From assembly GCF_013004105.1 (NCBI RefSeq), contig NZ_CP053085.1, positions 2,542,001-2,606,000 of the forward strand: DNA of 64,000 nucleotides. The letters run 5' to 3'. This DNA is from Gemmatimonas groenlandica (GTDB taxonomy: Bacteria; Gemmatimonadota; Gemmatimonadetes; Gemmatimonadales; Gemmatimonadaceae). Below are positions 30,500 to 46,909 of this stretch, piece by piece. Both the position numbers and the translations under genes were made by a program. Position 1 is the stretch's first letter; each line of letters begins with the position of its first letter. The notes beneath the pieces were generated by a model. The model had not been told where the DNA came from. It saw nothing but the letters and a program-made list of their open reading frames with translations, and searched no databases.

Positions 30500-31336
30500 A
30501 TGGCCACACGACGCCCTGCCCCGATCGACCTGACGGTCGTACCTGCTGCCGCGACGGCGTTTCGCCGTCGGCTGCACGCCTGGTTCAAGAAGCATTCGCG
30601 TGACTTGCCCTGGCGGCAGACGCGCGACCCGTACCGGATCCTGGTGTCGGAGCTGATGCTCCAGCAGACCCAGGTCTCGCGCGTCCTCGATTTCTATCGC
30701 CGCTTTCTCGATCGTTTTCCCGATCTCTATTCGCTTGCCGACGCACGGCCGAAGAAGGTCATGGAGGCGTGGGAGGGGCTGGGCTACTACGCCCGCGCGC
30801 GCAATCTGCACGCGCTCGCGAAGCATGTGACCACCGAGCAGGATGGTGTGATCCCGAGCGAACCGATCGCGCTGCGCGAACTGCCCGGTGTCGGTGCCTA
30901 CACCGCCGGTGCGGTGGCCTCGTTCGCGTATGAGAAGCGTGCCGCCTTGGTGGACACCAACGTGGCCCGTGTGCTGCAACGCGTTTTCGCGCCGCACCTG
31001 CATCCAAAATCGGGGCCCGGCCTGAAGCAGTTGTGGCTCATCGCCGAGCAGCTGCTACCCCGTACGGGCAAGACCACGTGGACGCACAATCAGGCGCTGA
31101 TGGAGCTGGGCGCGCTGGTGTGCACGGCGCGGGTGCCTCGGTGCGGGATCTGCCCAGTGAAAGCCGGCTGCGCCACGTTTCCGTTGTTGGAAGCGGCCGA
31201 ACGCGACGCGGCCGAACCCGAGGCGCTCAACGCATCTGCGCCGCTCACCCCGAAGGGCAAGCGGCGCAGTGTGCGGGCGAAGAAGCCGATGACGAAATCG
31301 ACTACGAAATCGACAGCGAGCGGATCACGCGGTTGA
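30500..31336 (+). CDS. mutY: A/G-specific adenine glycosylase, short form
   Basis: The catalytic Glu51 in SELMLQQTQVSRV, the helix-hairpin-helix LPGVGAYTAGAV and catalytic Asp152 in VDTNVARVL are present. The [4Fe-4S] ligands Cys208, 215, 218 and 224 have the MutY spacing C-x6-C-x2-C-x5-C. It removes adenine mispaired with 8-oxoguanine. At 278 residues it lacks the C-terminal Nudix-like domain of MutY (about 350 aa) that reads 8-oxoguanine; residues 230-278 are a Lys/Arg-rich tail instead. The last 35 bp overlap the convergent nuclease gene. Confidence 0.9.
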   Translation: MATRRPAPIDLTVVPAAATAFRRRLHAWFKKHSRDLPWRQTRDPYRILVSELMLQQTQVSRVLDFYRRFLDRFPDLYSLADARPKKVMEAWEGLGYYARARNLHALAKHVTTEQDGVIPSEPIALRELPGVGAYTAGAVASFAYEKRAALVDTNVARVLQRVFAPHLHPKSGPGLKQLWLIAEQLLPRTGKTTWTHNQALMELGALVCTARVPRCGICPVKAGCATFPLLEAAERDAAEPEALNASAPLTPKGKRRSVRAKKPMTKSTTKSTASGSRG

Positions 31337-34262
31337 GCATGGTGCGGATCGGTGCAGCCTGCAGTTCCGTGAGTCCGCGGCTGCGCACCAGCGCATCGAG
31401 CTCATTGATCAGCGCTTCAAGCTGATTCATCGCCGCGGTTTCGTTGCCGCGACGGATCGAGTTGGCCGCTGCACCGAGCTTGGCATTGAGCGAGTTCAAC
31501 ACGCCTTTATTCACGCGGCCGGTGCCGGCAAGCGCGTCGATCATGATGGCTGTGTTGTCGAGCGCCTGCGCCGGCGAGAGCACCGTGGCCGTGGTCGTTA
31601 CCGTGTCGGCGAGCCCGCGAATGTCGGTGGCGATCAGACGCACCGTGAACACGCCCGACGTGGTGTACACGTGCGAGGTGTTCACGCCGGAGGCCGTGGT
31701 GCCGTCACCGAAGCTCCAGGCGTAGGTGAGCGCGTCCCCGTCGGGATCGGTGGACGCCGACGCCGACATGGCTACGGATTCGTCTTCGATGGAGTTGAAC
31801 GGACCGTTCACCACCGCGACCGGCGGCTTGGTGTTGCTCTCGAGTGCGATCTCGAGGTCGTTGCGCAGGAGGCTGAGCAGATCGTAGCCACTCAGCGCCT
31901 CGACGGAATCGACCGTGGTCTTGTACGTCGCCCACGGGACGTTACGGATACCGGCCACGTTCGGCATCACGACGGCCACGATCTCGGCCGCATCGAGCGA
32001 CGTGACATTGGCGAGTCCCTGATTGCGCGGCAGGATCACGGCGACCTTCCACACATACTCGGGGATCACGATCTTGCCTTCGTTCTTGACCGTACCCTTG
32101 TTGCCGGCCACGCCGGCCACGATGAACACTTCCTTGTTGCTGCTCTGGGCGCGTGCGCCGAGATCGTTCTCCAGCGCTGCCCACGGACCCTGATTATTGT
32201 CGGCGGCCTGCGGCACGATGTTGCTGAAGTAGAACGTGCGTGCGTTGTCGAGCGAGCCCGTGGTACGGTCGAACGAGCGCGCCAGGTGGCCGCGATCGAT
32301 GCCATAGCCGGCGATGGCGCCAGCGCCGGTGTAGTCGGCCGTGGTGTAGCGCGGATAGTCGGCCGGCAGCGCCGGATCGTAGGTGAAGCAATCGCAGCGA
32401 TCGAAGGAACCGATGTGCGTCGCCTCGAGATTGTACGCGACCCAGTTCGGTGTGTTGCGCGTCTTGCTGTACGACACGGTGAACTGCGGGCGCTCGATGA
32501 TGAAGTCATCAGCGGGCGTGCCGTCGAACGGCGTGCCGAACTCCGTGTTGTTGCCGTAGGCGGCGGTGTTGCCGGCGGTCGCGACGTCGATGGGCAACGA
32601 GTACGTCGCGCTCGAGAGGCCGTCGGCCGTCGTGGCGCGGAGCACCGCAGTGCCGACCGCGAGGCCGGTGATGACGCCGTTCGCATCAATGCTGGCGATA
32701 GCTGGCGTATCGCTGTTCCAGAGAATCGTGCCCGGAACGGCCACGCCCAGGCGCGACGCATTGGCGAAAATCTGATCCTGGAAGCCGACCGGAAGCGCGG
32801 GGTCCGCCGGTACACGACCGGAGAAGCTGAACGCCGTTCGCAGCACGCCGGGCGTACGCCCGTTACAGCCGCCGAAGTTCTCCAGGCCGGCGCTCCACGT
32901 GTTGGCGAGTGAGCGCTGCAGCGAGTTGCCTACGCCCGGCGCCGGATCTTCCTTCGCAATGATGTCGATAGACGGGATACCGGCCGCCGGTCCGTCGGTC
33001 GCAGTGAAGGCGCCTTCGTACGACAGGAATTCAACCACGGTGCCCTGCGCATTCACGAGGGCGATGCCATCGGGCGAACCGTTCTGAATGCCGTCGGTCG
33101 GATACTCGAAGTACAACACGCCGCGGCCGCTGCAGGTGGACGCCACGATACCGCTCAACACGCGGGTGTTGTACACCGTGCCACCGTTGCCGTTGTACAG
33201 CAGCAGCTGCCATCCGCTGAGGTTGGTTCCAGCCGGCGCTTCGATTTCGATCGCTTCGCCGACGTCAGTATTGGCGTTGTCGTAGTGGACTTCACTGATG
33301 CGCACGGCGGGCAACGACGCCGCTTCGGTCACGGTCATCGTGGCCGTACTGGCTACGCCGTTGGCCGCCGTGGCGGTGATCGTCGTGGTGCCGATATCGA
33401 GCGCCGTAGCCACGCCGGTCGTGCTGATGCTGGCGACGAGCGGGGCGCTCGAGCTCCACGTGATCGTCGGGTTGGACACGGTAAGGCCATTCGCATCGGT
33501 CGCCACGGCCGTGAAGGTGCGGGTGCCACCGATCGGCGTCGACGCGGTGGCCGGCGTGACTACGATCGTTGTGATCGGACCGACGACGGGGCCGGATGCA
33601 CAGAGCACCGGCGTCGTCGCGCTGTTGCGCGGCGCGGCGGCACCCGTGGTGAAGTCGACGGCGTTGTTACGCGTCCATGCGCAGCCGTTGGTGGCGCGGA
33701 GGGCCGCGGTGCTGTTGGAAAGCGTCGCGGTGTTGTCGCTGGCAGGGCAGCTTGTTGGGCCGTAGCCGACGCGATCTACGACGTCAGGGCCATCGGGGCA
33801 TGTGCCGGTCTGCGCAGCCAGTGTTGACACCAGCACAATCTTCCCGCTCGTGCCGCTCATGGTGATCGTGCCCGCAGCATCTGGAGTGGGAAGATTCGTC
33901 GTTCCCCCCGTCCCCGCCGCTTCCTGCACGAGATAGTAGCCGCCTGCCGGGATCGTGCCGGACAACGGCGTGGTCGACGACACGGCATTGGCCGACGACG
34001 CGTACTGCACACTCCATCCCGCCACGCTCACCGACGACGAGCCGGTGTTGTGCAGCTCGATAAAATCGTTTTTGTAGACCGAGCCGCCATTGCCGCCGCC
34101 ACCATAGATCTGGCTGATCACGACCGACGGTCGCGTGGACGTCACCGAGAAGCGCGGCGCCGACGGTGTCGCCGCGTCAGGCGTGACGACGTCAGCGCTC
34201 GAACACGCCGAGGCAACGAGGGCCAGCGCGAACAGCGCGGCGCGGGATGGGCGAGATCTCAT
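31302..34262 (-). CDS. Secreted modular lipoprotein with DNA/RNA non-specific endonuclease domain
   Basis: A 986-residue protein. The signal peptide ends in a lipobox (LVASAC, Cys20). Lamin-tail-like domains lie at about 46-160 (VVISQIYGGGGN, NDFIELHN) and 318-470 (VRISEVHYDN). Ig-like BIG2 domains lie at about 230-312 and 505-560. The nuclease domain at about 585-800 has the catalytic DRGH at 656-659 in GYGIDRGHLARSF and the metal-site region FYFSNIVPQAADNNQGPW. A PKD domain (about 812-895, FGDGTTASGVNTSHVY) and a helical C-terminal module follow. It probably degrades extracellular nucleic acid at the cell surface for nutrients. The ATG at 34260-34262 gives the signal peptide. Confidence 0.9.
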   Translation of the reverse strand: MRSRPSRAALFALALVASACSSADVVTPDAATPSAPRFSVTSTRPSVVISQIYGGGGNGGSVYKNDFIELHNTGSSSVSVAGWSVQYASSANAVSSTTPLSGTIPAGGYYLVQEAAGTGGTTNLPTPDAAGTITMSGTSGKIVLVSTLAAQTGTCPDGPDVVDRVGYGPTSCPASDNTATLSNSTAALRATNGCAWTRNNAVDFTTGAAAPRNSATTPVLCASGPVVGPITTIVVTPATASTPIGGTRTFTAVATDANGLTVSNPTITWSSSAPLVASISTTGVATALDIGTTTITATAANGVASTATMTVTEAASLPAVRISEVHYDNANTDVGEAIEIEAPAGTNLSGWQLLLYNGNGGTVYNTRVLSGIVASTCSGRGVLYFEYPTDGIQNGSPDGIALVNAQGTVVEFLSYEGAFTATDGPAAGIPSIDIIAKEDPAPGVGNSLQRSLANTWSAGLENFGGCNGRTPGVLRTAFSFSGRVPADPALPVGFQDQIFANASRLGVAVPGTILWNSDTPAIASIDANGVITGLAVGTAVLRATTADGLSSATYSLPIDVATAGNTAAYGNNTEFGTPFDGTPADDFIIERPQFTVSYSKTRNTPNWVAYNLEATHIGSFDRCDCFTYDPALPADYPRYTTADYTGAGAIAGYGIDRGHLARSFDRTTGSLDNARTFYFSNIVPQAADNNQGPWAALENDLGARAQSSNKEVFIVAGVAGNKGTVKNEGKIVIPEYVWKVAVILPRNQGLANVTSLDAAEIVAVVMPNVAGIRNVPWATYKTTVDSVEALSGYDLLSLLRNDLEIALESNTKPPVAVVNGPFNSIEDESVAMSASASTDPDGDALTYAWSFGDGTTASGVNTSHVYTTSGVFTVRLIATDIRGLADTVTTTATVLSPAQALDNTAIMIDALAGTGRVNKGVLNSLNAKLGAAANSIRRGNETAAMNQLEALINELDALVRSRGLTELQAAPIRTMLNRVIRSLSIS

Positions 34263-34338
34263 GGGTACCGGTGCAGAAGTGCGAGTGTAGAGGTAGAGCC
34301 ATATGGTAGCGACGCAACAAATCCATTGTAAGGAATAG

Positions 34339-34376
34339 AAAAGCGGCGTGACGGTGATGTTACCCGTCACGCCGCT
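34339..34376 (-). terminator. Terminator of the cytochrome c maturation operon
   Basis: AGCGGCGTGACGG / CCGTCACGCCGCT, a 13-bp perfect stem with 9-nt loop, is followed on the minus strand by TTTT. It lies about 125 bp beyond the CcmI-like gene and upstream of the nuclease gene. I see no gene in the 125 bp between. Confidence 0.85.
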
Positions 34377-34501: not shown

Positions 34502-35104
34502 TCAGGCCGCCGCGAGCTGATCGCCGCAGCCGCTGCAGAAGCGGGACCCGACCAAATCCACGCTTGTGCCGCACTTCGCGCAGGCGCCCGGCAGGTAACG
34601 TCCACAGCTCGAGCAGAACGTCGCGTCGGGCTCCGGCCGCGGGCCGCACACGCCGCAGGAGCGCTGATTCTCGCGCGCCCGACGGATCGCCGCTTCCACG
34701 GGGTCGGCGGCGTCGGCAGGGCTCAAAGCCACGATGGCCACGGCGACCGGAGCCGCCGCCGCATCCCGCACGTCGGCCGCACGTAACTCCGCCAGCGCTT
34801 CGCGCGTGTACCGCGTCTTGAGCTCGGCGTAGTCGCTGTCCGATAGCTTACCGGTCTCGCGATCAAACTCGATTTCGCGAAGCGCGGCCACGGCACCGTC
34901 CAGCTGCTCTTCTGCTCGGCCCGAGCGCTTGGCCCGCGCAGCCTTCACGCGCGCCGCTTCCGTCGCCGCTTTCTTGTCGTCGTCCGCCCGCACTTCGGCC
35001 TCACCGCTCAACAGCGGCGAGAGGACCAGCGTGAGGGCGCCAAGAGCCAGCACCGTCCCCAGGACCAGCGGAACGGAGCCTTCCGGCATCGCGACCAGCG
35101 ACAT
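34502..35104 (-). CDS. CcmI-like membrane protein with zinc-ribbon C-terminus
   Basis: Residues about 12-33 form a membrane helix. Residues 60-110 contain LREIEFDRETGKLSDSDYAELK, the typical cytochrome c biogenesis CcmI/CycH pattern. A further hydrophobic Ala/Val stretch follows. The last 50 residues hold CGVC, CSSCG, CAKCG and CSGCG, which makes two zinc-ribbon units not found in standard CcmI. TPR repeats of full CcmI are missing. The start overlaps the CcmH stop as TGATG. It probably assists CcmH and CcmF in presenting apocytochrome or in complex assembly. Confidence 0.65.
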   Translation of the reverse strand: MSLVAMPEGSVPLVLGTVLALGALTLVLSPLLSGEAEVRADDDKKAATEAARVKAARAKRSGRAEEQLDGAVAALREIEFDRETGKLSDSDYAELKTRYTREALAELRAADVRDAAAAPVAVAIVALSPADAADPVEAAIRRARENQRSCGVCGPRPEPDATFCSSCGRYLPGACAKCGTSVDLVGSRFCSGCGDQLAAA

Positions 35105-35757
35105 CAGCGCTCCTCCCGCAAGGCCGCCTGGAGGCGCGCCAATTCATCGGGCGTCGCATCGATCGACGTGTCGATCTCCACCGGCGCCGAGGCACGCTTG
35201 GCCGCCGCCACGTCGGCATTCCGACGCCAGCCGCGCAGCAGCGCGCCGATCGCAACGGCACCGAGCGCGATCGCGGCAAACGGCGCAAACCAGGCCAGCA
35301 AGTTGAACCCCTGCTTCCGCGGCTGCATGAGGATGAAGTCCCCGTACGTCTGCGTCATCGCGGCCATGATTTCGTCGGCGTTGTAGCCGCCTTCCACCAG
35401 CCGCTGAATATCGCCGTGCACCGCTGGGGAGATGCCACAATTGAAATCGGTCGTGCGGCACGTGTAGATGTCGAGCGTGCACGGACACGGACAGGCGAGG
35501 TTACGCTCGAACGCTTCGAGTTGCTTCTCGTCCATCTGCTTCACGGCGTTCGACTTGGCCGGTCGCACCACCGGCTTGTACGAATCGGAGGTCATCTCTT
35601 CGCCGCCGGGCGCGGTCGCGGCCTGCGGCGTGGCGGCGTCCTGCGCCCACCCCGTACGCGCCAGTACCAGCGACCCGACGGCGATCACGGCAACCGATCC
35701 CGCGCGAGAGAGAAACTCCCGGCGTGAGCCGCCCGACGATTCGCGTACCGTGCTCAC
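35104..35757 (-). CDS. ccmH: CcmH-like protein with Tat signal
   Basis: The N-terminus SRREFLSRAGSVAVIAVGSL is a twin-arginine signal (RR at 12-13). The mature part has LACPCPC then CRTTDFNCGISP, in the place of the LRCxxCQ motif of CcmH/CycL. After it come HGDIQRLVEGGYNADEI and YGDFILMQP, both standard in the family, and a single membrane helix (about 150-172). CcmH reduces apocytochrome c thiols before heme attachment. Five Cys (89, 91, 93, 100, 107) instead of two suggest altered redox or metal chemistry. Coupled to ccmF by an ATGA overlap. Confidence 0.82.
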   Translation of the reverse strand: MSTVRESSGGSRREFLSRAGSVAVIAVGSLVLARTGWAQDAATPQAATAPGGEEMTSDSYKPVVRPAKSNAVKQMDEKQLEAFERNLACPCPCTLDIYTCRTTDFNCGISPAVHGDIQRLVEGGYNADEIMAAMTQTYGDFILMQPRKQGFNLLAWFAPFAAIALGAVAIGALLRGWRRNADVAAAKRASAPVEIDTSIDATPDELARLQAALREER

Positions 35758-37790
35758 GCGCCCGCCCCGACCAACGTCATGGTCGACTCCGACGGCAGTT
35801 CCGCCACGTAGCCACCTTCACGCTCCGCTCGGACTGCTTGCGGCCACATCACGATCAATCCACCGAACGCCATGATGATGCCGCCGAACCACACCCACCA
35901 CACCAGCGGGTTGAAGTTGATGTGAATCGCCGCCGTTTCCCGGTCGACCGCTCCGGTGAACACGAGATACACATCTTGCTTCGGCGACTCGAGAATGCCG
36001 ACTTCGGTGGACGGCTCGAACGTGGGCTCGCCCGCGGCGTTCACGTGCTGACGCTTCTCGCTCGAGAGGATCCCCATGCTCTTGCCGTCGCGCGTGACAC
36101 TGAACGACGCGGCCACGACCCGACGGTTGAGCTGCTCGAACGACGAGATGCCCTGACTCGTGAACACCCACTCGCTGCCGTACGAATCCTTCGCCTTCAC
36201 CGACTCGCCAGCCTTGAGCGTGGCCGTGAGGTCCTTCTTGAACATCAGACCGGCGAAGGCGCAGAAGAGAATGACCACGCCGAAGTGCACGATATAGCCG
36301 CCGTAGCGACGACGGTTGCGGCCGATCAGGCGCATGGAGGCGCCGAACAAGCCCTCGCCGTACATCCGGCGACGCGCGCCGATGCCCTTGACGAACTCCT
36401 GAATGATCGTGCCGAAGACGAAACCGGCCAGCAGGTACGACACCAGCGCATACATCTGGCGCATGCCCATCGCGAACAGCACCGCGAAGGTGACCACGCC
36501 GGAGATGACCGGCCAAGTGAACTGCCGCTTGAGATTCGAAATGGATGCGCGACGCCACGCGATCAGCGGGCCGATGCCGGTGAGCGCGAGCAGCAGCAGA
36601 CCGAGCGGGCCATTGACCGCATTAAAGAACGGCGGACCCACCGTGATCTTGTCGCCCTTCACCCACTCGCTGAGAATCGGGAAGAGCACCCCCCACAGCG
36701 TGGCGAAGCAGATACCGACCAGCACGAGGTTGTTGTACAAGAACGCCGCCTCGCGGCTCACCATGCTTTCGAGTTCGGCGTTCGCCTGCAGATCGTTCAG
36801 GCGCGTGGACACGAGATACGCGGTGCTGATCGCGGCGACGATGAGGAAGCCGAGGAACCAGTCACCCACGGGCGACTGCGCGAAGGCATGGACGCTCTCG
36901 ATGATGCCGCTACGCGTGATGAACGTGCCGAGGATCGTGAGCAGGAACGACATCGCCACCAGTGTCACGTTCCACTTGCGCAGCATGCCGCGCTTTTCCT
37001 GGATCATGATGCTGTGCAGGAACGCCGTGATCGTGAGCCAGGGCAGGAACGACGAATTCTCGACGGCATCCCAAGCCCAGTAGCCGGCCCAGCCGAGTTC
37101 TACGTACGCCCACCACATACCAAGCACGATGCCGATGGTCAGGAAGAACCACGACAGCAACGCCCAACGGCGAACGGCACCAAGCCACTGCGTGTCGAGT
37201 TTTCGGGTGACCAGTGCGCCGATCGCGAAGGCGAACGGAATCGCCGTGCCGACAAGCCCTAGATAGAGCATCGGCGGATGGATCGCCATGCCCGGATTCT
37301 GCAGCTGCGGATTCATGCCGCGACCTTCGGGCGGAATCCAATCGAGGCGCTCGTACGGATTGGCGCCGAAGCACATCGTCATCAGGAAGAACAGGCAGAT
37401 GATGCCCAAGGTCCCGGTGACATACGGCATCATGGCGCGATTCGTCTTGCGATTCGAAAAGACCGCGATCGCCGAATACGTGGTCAGAATCAACGCCCAG
37501 AACAGCATCGACCCGGACTGCCCGGCCCAGAAGGCCGTGAACGTATAGATCTTCGGCAGGTTCGAGCTCGTGTACGAGGCCACGAACTTGATCGAGAAGT
37601 CGTGCATGAAGAGGGCGGTCCACAACCCGATGGACGCGAGCAACGTGAACCCGAACGTTGCGTACAGCGCCCGCTCACCGCTCTTCACAAGGTCAGGGCG
37701 CCCCTGCAGGCCCCCGGAGAACGACACGGTAGTCGTCCAGGCCGCCATCAACAGGGCGACCCAGAGCGACAATTCACCAACGAGAATCAT
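35754..37790 (-). CDS. ccmF: Cytochrome c heme lyase subunit CcmF
   Basis: A 678-residue polytopic membrane protein with about 14-15 hydrophobic segments. The periplasmic tryptophan-rich (WWD) motif reads GMWWAYVELGWAGYWAWD. Upstream lies the family's FWAGQSGSMLFWAL and NPGMAIHPPMLYLG. CcmF takes heme from CcmE and joins it to CxxCH of apocytochrome c. It is followed by ccmH with 4-nt overlap and preceded by ccmE 33 nt upstream. ccmA, ccmB, ccmC and ccmG are not in the window. Confidence 0.95.
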   Translation of the reverse strand: MILVGELSLWVALLMAAWTTTVSFSGGLQGRPDLVKSGERALYATFGFTLLASIGLWTALFMHDFSIKFVASYTSSNLPKIYTFTAFWAGQSGSMLFWALILTTYSAIAVFSNRKTNRAMMPYVTGTLGIICLFFLMTMCFGANPYERLDWIPPEGRGMNPQLQNPGMAIHPPMLYLGLVGTAIPFAFAIGALVTRKLDTQWLGAVRRWALLSWFFLTIGIVLGMWWAYVELGWAGYWAWDAVENSSFLPWLTITAFLHSIMIQEKRGMLRKWNVTLVAMSFLLTILGTFITRSGIIESVHAFAQSPVGDWFLGFLIVAAISTAYLVSTRLNDLQANAELESMVSREAAFLYNNLVLVGICFATLWGVLFPILSEWVKGDKITVGPPFFNAVNGPLGLLLLALTGIGPLIAWRRASISNLKRQFTWPVISGVVTFAVLFAMGMRQMYALVSYLLAGFVFGTIIQEFVKGIGARRRMYGEGLFGASMRLIGRNRRRYGGYIVHFGVVILFCAFAGLMFKKDLTATLKAGESVKAKDSYGSEWVFTSQGISSFEQLNRRVVAASFSVTRDGKSMGILSSEKRQHVNAAGEPTFEPSTEVGILESPKQDVYLVFTGAVDRETAAIHINFNPLVWWVWFGGIIMAFGGLIVMWPQAVRAEREGGYVAELPSESTMTLVGAGA

Positions 37791-37823: not shown

Positions 37824-38279
37824 CTACGCGCGGGGGGTTGCCGACGTGCCCTGCTTGTAGCCGGGCGTGTCCTTGTACTTCTCGGGAGCGTTCTCGTAGC
37901 GCGACGCACACTTGGCCAGCAGCGTAGTAGCCTGGAAGGTGCCGTTGGCATCGAGTCGGCCCTCGACCACGACGTCCACACCATCGGTGAACGTATCCGG
38001 CGCGATGCCGCGGTATTGCACGTCGTACACTTTGGTGCCGTCGGTCATCTTGAACGTGAGCGAACGTCCCGACGGGTCACGCACGATCGTGCCGCTGACG
38101 ACACGGGCGCCGACCTTCACACCCGTATTCACGAAGCGCGGGTTCTCGGAGACTTTGCTCGCGAGCTCGCCCGGCGTGAGATAATAGGTAGCCGTCTCGT
38201 CGATCGAGCTGGCCATCAGATAGCCGGCGGTGCCCAGCACCAGCACGCCGCCGAACAGAAATTTGTTTCGAGCTTTCAC
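37824..38279 (-). CDS. ccmE: Heme chaperone CcmE, cysteine type
   Basis: One N-terminal membrane helix (about 6-22) is followed by the OB-fold (YYLTPGELAS, VSGTIVRDPSGRSLTFKMTDG, VDVVVEGRLDANGTF). In place of the usual heme-binding LAKHDENY the sequence reads LLAKCASRY: Cys124 takes the His position and Tyr128 keeps the +4 Tyr. This CxxxY form is known from CcmE of some sulfate reducers and archaea, where heme is carried on Cys. The GTG start at 38277-38279 has GAGGA 8 nt upstream. The protein passes heme to CcmF, encoded next. Confidence 0.9.
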   Translation of the reverse strand: MKARNKFLFGGVLVLGTAGYLMASSIDETATYYLTPGELASKVSENPRFVNTGVKVGARVVSGTIVRDPSGRSLTFKMTDGTKVYDVQYRGIAPDTFTDGVDVVVEGRLDANGTFQATTLLAKCASRYENAPEKYKDTPGYKQGTSATPRA

Positions 38280-45463: not shown

Positions 45464-46909
45464 TTACCGCCCAAACGGATTCGAGAACCGTACATCCGTC
45501 AGGAACGTGTTGTCCGTGAGCGTCCCGAGGAACGCCACAAGCGACGCACGCTCGGCCGCCGACAGATTGAGCCGCAATGGCGGCCCATTGCCTCCGCCGC
45601 CGCCACGCAAGCGGTTGTCGAGCCCCGGATTGTTCTGCACGCCCGAGTCGTAGAACGCGATCACCTGCTCCAGTGTCTGGAAGCGACCATCGTGCATGTA
45701 TGGCGGGCGCACGGCGATGTTGCGCAACGATGGTGCTTTGAAGCGGCCGTTGCCCGCGCCGGCATCGGTGATCGTGGCGTCGAGGCCGGTGTTGTGCACA
45801 CCGTCGCTGATGTGCGCATTGGTGCCATGACAGCGCGCGCATCCGGCGCGGCCGTTGAACAGATCCTGGCCGGCCAGCTCCTGCGCGGTGAACGTGGCGG
45901 CGAAGTTGGGCACACCGTTCACGCCAAACGCGCGATCGAACTTCGAGTTCACCGACACCAGCGATCGCACGAACTGCGAGAGGGCGAGACTCACACGATC
46001 ACTCGTGATCTCGCTCGTGCCGAAGGCGGCGCTGAAGAGCGCCGGGTAGTACGTGGTCGCCGACAGCTTGGCGATCACGTTCGGCAACGTCATCCCCATC
46101 TCGGTGGCGTCCTGAATCGGCTGCAGCACCTGCGCTTCCAAGCTTGCCGCACGTTCATCCCAGAAGAATCTCGCGCTCGCATAGAAGCGTGAGTTGGCCA
46201 GCCCCATGCTGTGGCGCCCGGTGAATCCGCCGGCGAAGCCGTGGCTGAGTCGCGACGTGTCGGAAAAGGCGAACTGCTGCTGGTGGCACGAGCTGCACGA
46301 CACGCGGTCGTTGGCCGAGAGCCGGCGATCATAGAACAACACGCGGCCGAGCGTGGCACCGGCGTTGGTCGTGATGTTCGATGCCGGGGTGTTGTCGGCA
46401 CCGATCGGACTGCCGGCGTTCGGTGCAGCCTGCGAGAAATGGCGCGGCAGCGGGTTGCTGGCGTCGGAATACAGGTGAGTCGTGGCCGGCAACGTCGGTG
46501 CGGTGAGATCACCGGCAAACACCACGATCGCGAAGCTGTGCGACGCGCTGCTGCCGCTGTTATCCCGCGCCGTGATCGTCACGGTGTACACACCGGGATT
46601 ACTGGCCGTGCCCGAGATGGTGCCATTGGCCGCCGTCATGCCAGTGACCGCCGGCGTGAACGATACGGTGTACGTGAGCCCCGACTTTCGCGGATCGCTG
46701 AACGCCGTGCCGGCCTTGGTCGCGTCGTACGCGAACGGCACGCCAACCATCGCCGCCTGCGTGCTATTCGGCGACACGACGCTCACCGCGTCCGTACTCG
46801 GTGTGACCGTAGGGGTATCGATTGCAGCAGGGCTCGTCGTCGCATCGCCGGCGCACGCGCCGATCGCGAGCGAAGCCGTGAGAAGAGCGATCAGTCTGAC
46901 GTGGCGCAT
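45464..46909 (-). CDS. Di-heme cytochrome c peroxidase (MauG family) lipoprotein
   Basis: The signal peptide ends in lipobox AIGAC (Cys19). A putative-Ig/cadherin-like domain follows (about 45-132, with GTISGTASNPGVYTVTITARD). The catalytic part (about 150-481) has two heme sites, CSSCH at 205-209 and CARCH at 357-361, and the family motifs GRVLFYDRRLS, GGFTGRHSMGLAN and APSLRNIAVRPPYMHDGRFQTLEQV. It reduces hydrogen peroxide, or acts as a MauG-like oxidase, in the periplasm or on the outer membrane. It needs the cytochrome c maturation system encoded at 34502-38279. It is flanked on both sides by the palindromic repeat. Confidence 0.92.
   Translation of the reverse strand: MRHVRLIALLTASLAIGACAGDATTSPAAIDTPTVTPSTDAVSVVSPNSTQAAMVGVPFAYDATKAGTAFSDPRKSGLTYTVSFTPAVTGMTAANGTISGTASNPGVYTVTITARDNSGSSASHSFAIVVFAGDLTAPTLPATTHLYSDASNPLPRHFSQAAPNAGSPIGADNTPASNITTNAGATLGRVLFYDRRLSANDRVSCSSCHQQQFAFSDTSRLSHGFAGGFTGRHSMGLANSRFYASARFFWDERAASLEAQVLQPIQDATEMGMTLPNVIAKLSATTYYPALFSAAFGTSEITSDRVSLALSQFVRSLVSVNSKFDRAFGVNGVPNFAATFTAQELAGQDLFNGRAGCARCHGTNAHISDGVHNTGLDATITDAGAGNGRFKAPSLRNIAVRPPYMHDGRFQTLEQVIAFYDSGVQNNPGLDNRLRGGGGGNGPPLRLNLSAAERASLVAFLGTLTDNTFLTDVRFSNPFGR

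What the first reader, a model, noticed from the sequence alone, without database searches (positions are those of the whole stretch)
37824..38279. CcmE with Cys at the heme-binding position, in a system that also has CcmH and CcmI-like genes
CcmE carries CASRY in place of HDENY. Cys-type CcmE is known from some sulfate reducers and archaea, typically in reduced systems lacking CcmH. Here it sits with CcmF and a modified CcmH. This looks like an intermediate or hybrid form of system I.
Basis: partly seen in the sequence, partly recalled or inferred. Interest (0 to 1): 0.65.

Follow-up and report, generated by a model that had tools for sequence, protein, structure and literature searches.

The report
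Cysteine-type CcmE with Tat-type CcmH
This Gemmatimonas-like bacterium attaches heme to its cytochromes with the already known cysteine version of the Ccm machine, but its CcmH partner has an unusual cluster of five cysteines and a twin-arginine export signal, an arrangement found across this part of its phylum that I did not find described.

Summary
On the minus strand, 37824-38279 encodes an intact CcmE whose heme-binding position is Cys124 (KCASRY). It is the only CcmE in a complete 5.18 Mb chromosome, and ccmF, ccmH and a CcmI-like gene follow in one tight operon. A complete ccmABCD lies elsewhere in the genome, and there is no ResB.

The interpretation needs changing. Cys-CcmE with CcmH is not exceptional: a 2011 review reports CcmH in about a third of bacteria with this 'System I*'. 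In 146 genomes of this phylum I count 103 Cys-only, 39 His-only and 3 with both systems. In a CcmF tree the Cys partners form one group (SH-aLRT 89), so this is an inherited lineage rather than a recent hybrid.

What I did not find described is the CcmH. The canonical CxxC is replaced by CxCxC...C...C in 55 of 62 Cys-type operons with an adjacent CcmH, and in 0 of 30 His-type. In families f1 and f2 it carries a twin-arginine motif (48 of 53, against 1 of 35 canonical CcmH). The CcmI-like protein keeps only the N-terminal part and ends in a zinc ribbon. I rate this a new variant of a known kind.

The parts
37824..38279 (-). ccmE, Cys-type heme chaperone, 151 aa, GTG start
   Evidence: PF03100 98 bits; only CcmE in genome; start supported by aligned relatives
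37908..37910 (-). codon of Cys124, at the heme-binding position (KCASRY; E. coli KHDENY)
35754..37790 (-). ccmF, heme lyase with WWD domain; heme-ligand histidines H171, H259, H301, H502 invariant in both CcmE types
   Evidence: PF01578 + PF16327; alignment of 89 typed CcmF; 6ZMQ match
35104..35757 (-). ccmH variant, 217 aa: Tat-like signal, five-Cys cluster, C-terminal membrane helix; no CxxC
   Evidence: PF03918 66 bits; alignment; AF2 model and 2HL7 match
35710..35727 (-). twin-arginine motif SRREFL of CcmH (residues 11-16)
   Evidence: sequence; motif in 48 of 53 class b CcmH of families f1 and f2
35437..35493 (-). Cys cluster of CcmH, residues 89, 91, 93, 100, 107 (CPCPCTLDIYTCRTTDFNC)
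   Evidence: conserved in families f1, f2, f3
34502..35104 (-). CcmI-like membrane protein, 200 aa: N-terminal TM helix and CcmI loop, then zinc ribbon in place of TPR
   Evidence: DZR 32 bits; TIGR03142 20.8 bits, below its 29.3 cut-off; alignment
34526..34657 (-). double zinc ribbon, eight Cys in four CxxC pairs

Best explanation
This is the organism's single, complete, ordinary-purpose cytochrome c maturation system, of the Cys-type (System I*) lineage. Proposed working: CcmABCD, encoded elsewhere beside hemC/hemD, brings heme to the outer face. CcmC loads it onto Cys124 of CcmE, by thioether or thiolate rather than the N-His bond of E. coli. Holo-CcmE passes heme to the WWD site of CcmF, which attaches it to CxxCH apocytochromes with CcmH. 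What is distinctive is the accessory half. CcmH keeps the CcmH helical domain and C-terminal membrane anchor, but has lost the thiol-exchange CxxC and gained a CxCxC...C...C cluster. In this family it is predicted to leave the cell by the Tat route, i.e. folded. CcmI is reduced to its membrane helix and cytoplasmic-loop part and ends in a zinc ribbon. I infer that CcmH here acts mainly as the structural partner of CcmF that positions apocytochrome, with thiol reduction supplied by DsbD/CcdA-type proteins, and that its Cys cluster is structural or metal-binding. Shown here: gene content, residues, conservation, lineage, Tat motif. Inferred: all chemistry, topology and the roles of CcmH and the zinc ribbon.
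For: Only CcmE, only CcmH, no ResB/System II, CcmC and a full ccmABCD at 282.6-285.1 kb next to hemD/hemC. Thirteen cytochrome c domains need maturing; three DsbD/CcdA-type hits; TatC present. CcmF: four ligand histidines invariant in 67 Cys-type and 22 His-type sequences, WWD present. Cys-type CcmE works experimentally in D. desulfuricans and M. acetivorans (PMC3601427, PMC9084895). Cys-type CcmF form one group including Bacillaceae (SH-aLRT 89). CcmH classes: 30 of 30 His-type canonical; Cys-type 55 class b, 2 class c, 5 canonical. Tat motif 48 of 53 against 1 of 35. CcmH fold kept: 2HL7, Z 6.4 over 70 residues.
Against: No experiment. The D. vulgaris Cys-type CcmE was reported to bind heme non-covalently (PMC3884852), so the bond is open. 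The Foldseek match of the CcmH model is weak (E 4.7) and Z 6.4 is middling, though it is the top hit and Pfam agrees. CcmI membership rests on a sub-threshold score. The Tat call is a motif, not a tested signal, and families f3 and f5 have class b CcmH without it.
Confidence: 0.85

Rival explanations
1. Metal- or cluster-bearing CcmH: the five-Cys cluster is loaded with a cofactor (Zn, Cu or Fe-S) in the cytoplasm, which is why CcmH goes through Tat, and this cofactor takes part in releasing heme from Cys-CcmE or in reducing apocytochrome.
For: Tat motif and Cys cluster occur together in 48 of 53 class b CcmH of f1 and f2 and almost never in canonical CcmH; Tat commonly exports proteins folded with a cofactor (general knowledge); the cluster CxCxC-x6-C-x6-C is strongly conserved.
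Against: f3 and f5 have the cluster without a Tat motif; Tat may simply serve fast-folding C-tail-anchored proteins; no metal site was modelled and I had no coordinates to measure Cys distances.
Confidence: 0.2
2. True hybrid or intermediate: a Cys-type CcmE was inserted recently into a His-type operon that kept its CcmH and CcmI.
For: CcmE is Cys-type while CcmH and CcmI-like genes are present; both system types live in this phylum and even in single genomes.
Against: CcmF of Cys-type loci is a group of its own and tracks families; CcmH and CcmI of these loci also differ from those of His-type loci; the pattern is phylum-wide.
Confidence: 0.05
3. The Cys is neutral drift in a His-independent or redundant CcmE.
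For: E. coli H130C CcmE still binds heme, though it does not transfer it (PMC9084895).
Against: Cys invariant with Tyr/Phe in over 100 genomes; sole CcmE in this genome.
Confidence: 0.03

Closest known systems
System I* (Cys-CcmE Ccm system of Desulfovibrio, archaea, some Chloroflexi and Firmicutes)
   Same: CxxxY CcmE as the sole chaperone, CcmABCD and CcmF; grouping of CcmF with a Bacillaceae CPSKY system
   Different: The tested D. desulfuricans system has no CcmH or CcmG (PMC3601427); here CcmH is present with a five-Cys cluster and Tat motif, the motif is C[AG]SRY rather than CPSKY, and CcmI carries a zinc ribbon
Canonical System I of E. coli (CcmABCDEFGH)
   Same: CcmABCD, CcmE, CcmF and a CcmH-domain protein; same four CcmF histidines
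   Different: Cys instead of His on CcmE; CcmH without CxxC; no TPR CcmI part; ccmABCD unlinked from ccmEFH; no ccmG in either ccm gene cluster
Bacillaceae plasmid ccm operon (Metabacillus pB218, Cytobacillus firmus p1)
   Same: Cys-CcmE, CcmF, CcmH without CxxC, and a short CcmI-loop protein in the same order
   Different: CPSKY motif, CcmH with two Cys only and no Tat motif, no zinc ribbon, ccmABC in the same cluster
His-type System I of other Gemmatimonadota
   Same: Same genes in the same phylum, in three cases in the same genome
   Different: KHS[NE]EY CcmE, canonical CxxC CcmH without Tat motif, CcmF grouping with Actinomycetota

Membership tests
CcmE (PF03100) | OB-fold CcmE domain | tested here: met
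   98 bits, cut-off 24.6; solved CcmE matched, e.g. 8ce8 E 6.5e-15
CcmE (PF03100) | heme-binding His in HxxxY | tested here: not met
   Cys124 in KCASRY
System I* (Cys-type CcmE system) | CxxxY CcmE as the genome's CcmE | tested here: met
System I* (Cys-type CcmE system) | CcmABC(D)F present | tested here: met
   CcmF; ccmABCD (CcmA over its cut-off, CcmB and CcmC below equivalog cut-offs, CcmD by position and a weak score)
System I* (Cys-type CcmE system) | absence of CcmH (original 2006 description; dropped in the 2011 review) | tested here: not met
   PF03918 66 bits; review PMC3601427 says absence is not characteristic
System I* (Cys-type CcmE system) | heme bound covalently to the Cys and passed on | not testable with these tools
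   needs protein chemistry
CcmH (PF03918) | CcmH helical domain | tested here: met
   66 bits, cut-off 25; top structural match 2HL7 Z 6.4, 70 residues, rmsd 3.2
CcmH (PF03918) | redox-active LRCxxC | tested here: not met
   LACPCPC...C...C
CcmI | N-terminal TM and loop region (TIGR03142) | tested here: inconclusive
   20.8 bits, cut-off 29.3; a 28-row profile gives only 10.7 bits to Cupriavidus CcmI
CcmI | C-terminal TPR domain | tested here: not met
   zinc ribbon instead
Tat substrate (CcmH) | S/T-R-R-x-F-L motif before a hydrophobic stretch | tested here: met
   SRREFL at residues 11-16; conserved; TatC in genome
Tat substrate (CcmH) | export depends on TatC | not testable with these tools
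   needs a reporter assay
System II (CcsBA/ResBC) | ResB/CcsB | tested here: not met
   no PF05140 in genome

The most novel reading that the evidence does not exclude
A Tat-exported, cofactor-bearing CcmH: the five-Cys cluster carries a metal or Fe-S centre inserted in the cytoplasm and works with the thiol-ligated heme of Cys-CcmE, replacing the CxxC thiol exchange of ordinary System I with a different reductive step.
Probability: 0.18. Interest if true: 0.75.

Novelty: new variant of a known kind. Interest (0 to 1): 0.47.

Why it matters
How a stable Cys-heme bond on CcmE is made and broken, and what CcmH does, are open questions of cytochrome c biogenesis. This phylum offers a natural comparison: closely related genomes run the Cys-type or the His-type system, three run both, and the Cys-type comes with canonical, two-Cys or five-Cys CcmH or with none found. 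The link between loss of CxxC in CcmH and Cys on CcmE, and the Tat signal on CcmH, can be tested directly. It also corrects the idea that Cys-type systems are reduced ones.

Tried and rejected
Recent hybrid: rejected on the CcmF trees. Second CcmE in the genome: none. System II backup: none. E for D in the WWD motif of CcmC as a marker of Cys-type: rejected, both occur in both types. CcmF VEL/EVL swap in the WWD region as a marker of CcmE type: it separates the two types in this phylum, but the Thermus 6ZMQ alignment and E. coli (recalled sequence) suggest it follows CcmF lineage. CcmH absent from f5: rejected, it lies outside the operon. The one genome-contig scan and the 396-genome relatives search (its query was typed with small errors at the N-terminus and should not be over-read) stayed inside the phylum, so CcmE type against CcmH class in other phyla rests on a few plasmid records. 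Plasmid search with this CcmH: no match. The structure search added no fold beyond the two solved CcmH. A DNA pattern for the motif found nothing because it was badly built. Two regex errors in the CcmE tally (L081, L267) were corrected. Full text of Goddard 2010 is not held.

Full report
What is there. 37824-38279 (minus) encodes a 151-aa CcmE with Cys124 and Tyr128 in LLAKCASRYENAP, Pfam CcmE 98 bits. The GTG start fits aligned relatives. Downstream on the same strand come ccmF (35754-37790), ccmH (35104-35757) and a 200-aa CcmI-like zinc-ribbon gene (34502-35104), with junctions of +33, -4 and -1 bp, i.e. one operon. The genome is a single 5.18 Mb contig. Named near relatives of the locus are Gemmatimonadota, including Gemmatimonas, Roseisolibacter and Longimicrobiaceae.

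Completeness of the system. The genome has one CcmE, one CcmH, and two Cytochrom_C_asm proteins, CcmF and CcmC. ccmA, ccmB, ccmC and a ccmD-like gene lie together at about 282.6-285.1 kb beside hemD and hemC (CcmD by position and a weak TIGR04391 score only). No ResB. Thirteen cytochrome c domains pass the family cut-off, so the system has clients. Three DsbD/CcdA-type proteins could supply reductant. No ccmG was seen in either ccm cluster.

Distribution. PF03100 was found in 142 of 150 genomes of the phylum. I read the motif in all 142 plus four genomes added for families f8 and f10. Result: 103 genomes Cys-type only, 39 His-type only, 3 with both, 1 with an undetermined base (two misreads corrected). 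Cys motifs are KC[AG]S[RK][YF] and, in f8 and f10, KCPSKY; His motifs are KHS[NE]EY. Both types occur inside the window's own family. G010 and G074 hold two CcmF and two CcmC at the expected places, i.e. apparently two whole systems (G061 is fragmented but similar).

Lineage. A CcmF tree of 95 sequences separates His and Cys partners by a long, fully supported branch, and within the Cys side the families f1, f2, f3 and f6 are each one group. With outgroups all Cys partners, including f8, f10 and two Bacillaceae plasmid systems with CPSKY CcmE, form one group (SH-aLRT 89). E. coli, Cupriavidus and Ruegeria lie beside them, and the Gemmatimonadota His-type groups with Actinomycetota. This argues for an inherited Cys lineage and a second, unrelated His-type system in the phylum, against a recent hybrid. 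Support is from a quick tree and the root is unknown.

CcmF is ordinary where it matters. Positions H171, H259, H301 and H502, which line up with the two P-His and two TM-His heme ligands described for E. coli (PMC10746174; the residue correspondence is my own alignment and recall), are invariant in 67 Cys-type and 22 His-type sequences, and the WWD motif is present. So the lyase mechanism need not differ.

CcmH is not ordinary. Three Cys classes appear: (a) canonical LRCPVC; (b) CxCxC-x6-C-x6/7-C as in the window (residues 89, 91, 93, 100, 107); (c) SP[YF]CPG-x2-L-x2-CPS, which keeps only the second Cys of CxxC. In neighbourhoods where CcmH is adjacent, 30 of 30 His-type loci have class a; Cys-type loci have 55 class b, 2 class c (one of them with that Cys replaced by Gly) and 5 class a, the last all in f8 and f10. 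So loss of CxxC goes with Cys-CcmE, but not without exception and with few independent events; it is an association, not a rule. Bacillaceae Cys-type CcmH also lacks CxxC (PPGCTDSMTADYC), while His-type Pseudonocardia, Cupriavidus and Ruegeria keep it. In f5 no CcmH sits in the operon, but almost every genome has one elsewhere, class b or c in the eleven read. G121 and G097 have Cys-CcmE and no CcmH found; both are drafts.

Tat. The window CcmH begins MSTVRESSGGSRREFLSRAGSVAVIAVGSLVLARTGWAQ, a textbook twin-arginine pattern. The motif is in 48 of 53 class b CcmH of f1 and f2 (40 of 53 by a strict RRxF pattern), against 1 of 35 (0 of 35 strict) canonical ones and 0 of 2 in f3. TatC is present. 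The AF2 model (mean pLDDT 83) shows a signal helix, a CcmH-like helical domain (2HL7 Z 6.4 and 2KW0 Z 5.6; Foldseek E 4.7, weak) and a long C-terminal helix with the membrane span. A Tat-exported, C-tail-anchored CcmH did not turn up in the one literature search I made for it (four papers, titles and abstracts only).

CcmI-like. The 200-aa protein has one N-terminal membrane helix and the ALREIEFDRETGKLSDxDY segment that scores 20.8 bits to CcmI TIGR03142 (cut-off 29.3), and ends in eight Cys in four CxxC pairs. A profile of it finds the short Bacillaceae protein just after ccmH at 37 bits and Cupriavidus CcmI at only 10.7 bits. By analogy with CcmI topology the ribbon would be cytoplasmic; this is inference.

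Known or new. Cys-type CcmE ('System I*') is established: it works in Desulfovibrio genes moved to E. coli and in Methanosarcina, where C120 is needed for heme attachment. The 2011 review says one third of bacterial Cys-type systems contain CcmH and names delta-proteobacteria, Chloroflexi and Firmicutes. What I did not find described is the five-Cys Tat-type CcmH and the zinc-ribbon CcmI. Most of the literature behind subscription was not searchable.

Mechanism, with marks. Shown: gene content, residues, conservation, lineage, motif statistics. Established elsewhere for relatives: heme binding to the Cys of CcmE. Inferred: CcmABCD loads Cys124; CcmF accepts heme and ligates it to CxxCH; CcmH is a CcmF partner that positions apocytochrome without CxxC exchange; the Cys cluster is structural or metal-binding; Tat export reflects folding, perhaps with a cofactor, inside the cell.

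Noticed in passing
L237:9001-9375 and L240:9001-9456: CcmE of Halobacterium noricense and Natronorubrum bangense plasmids ends VRAHEGE with neither CxxxY nor HxxxY, although a 2022 paper calls CxxxY universal in archaeal CcmE.
   Followed up: no
L226, L227, L228, L229, L230, L231, L232: Several Cys-type f1 and f2 genomes carry an extra CcmH-like gene of the SPYCPG...CPS class away from the ccm operon.
   Followed up: partly
   Followed up: partly
L062:8284-10897: G121 (f1, 94% complete) has a Cys-type operon in which the zinc-ribbon gene follows ccmF directly and no CcmH is found in the genome.
   Followed up: partly
L054:6638-10907: In the window's genome ccmABCD sits directly upstream of hemD and hemC, far from ccmEFH.
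   Followed up: no
window 45464-46909 (-): Di-heme cytochrome c protein (CSSCH and CARCH motifs), one of the likely clients of this Ccm system.
   Followed up: no
window 31302-34370 (-): 1022-aa secreted-looking protein that seems to hold Ig/PKD-like stretches and a nuclease-like part; judged by eye, not examined.
   Followed up: no
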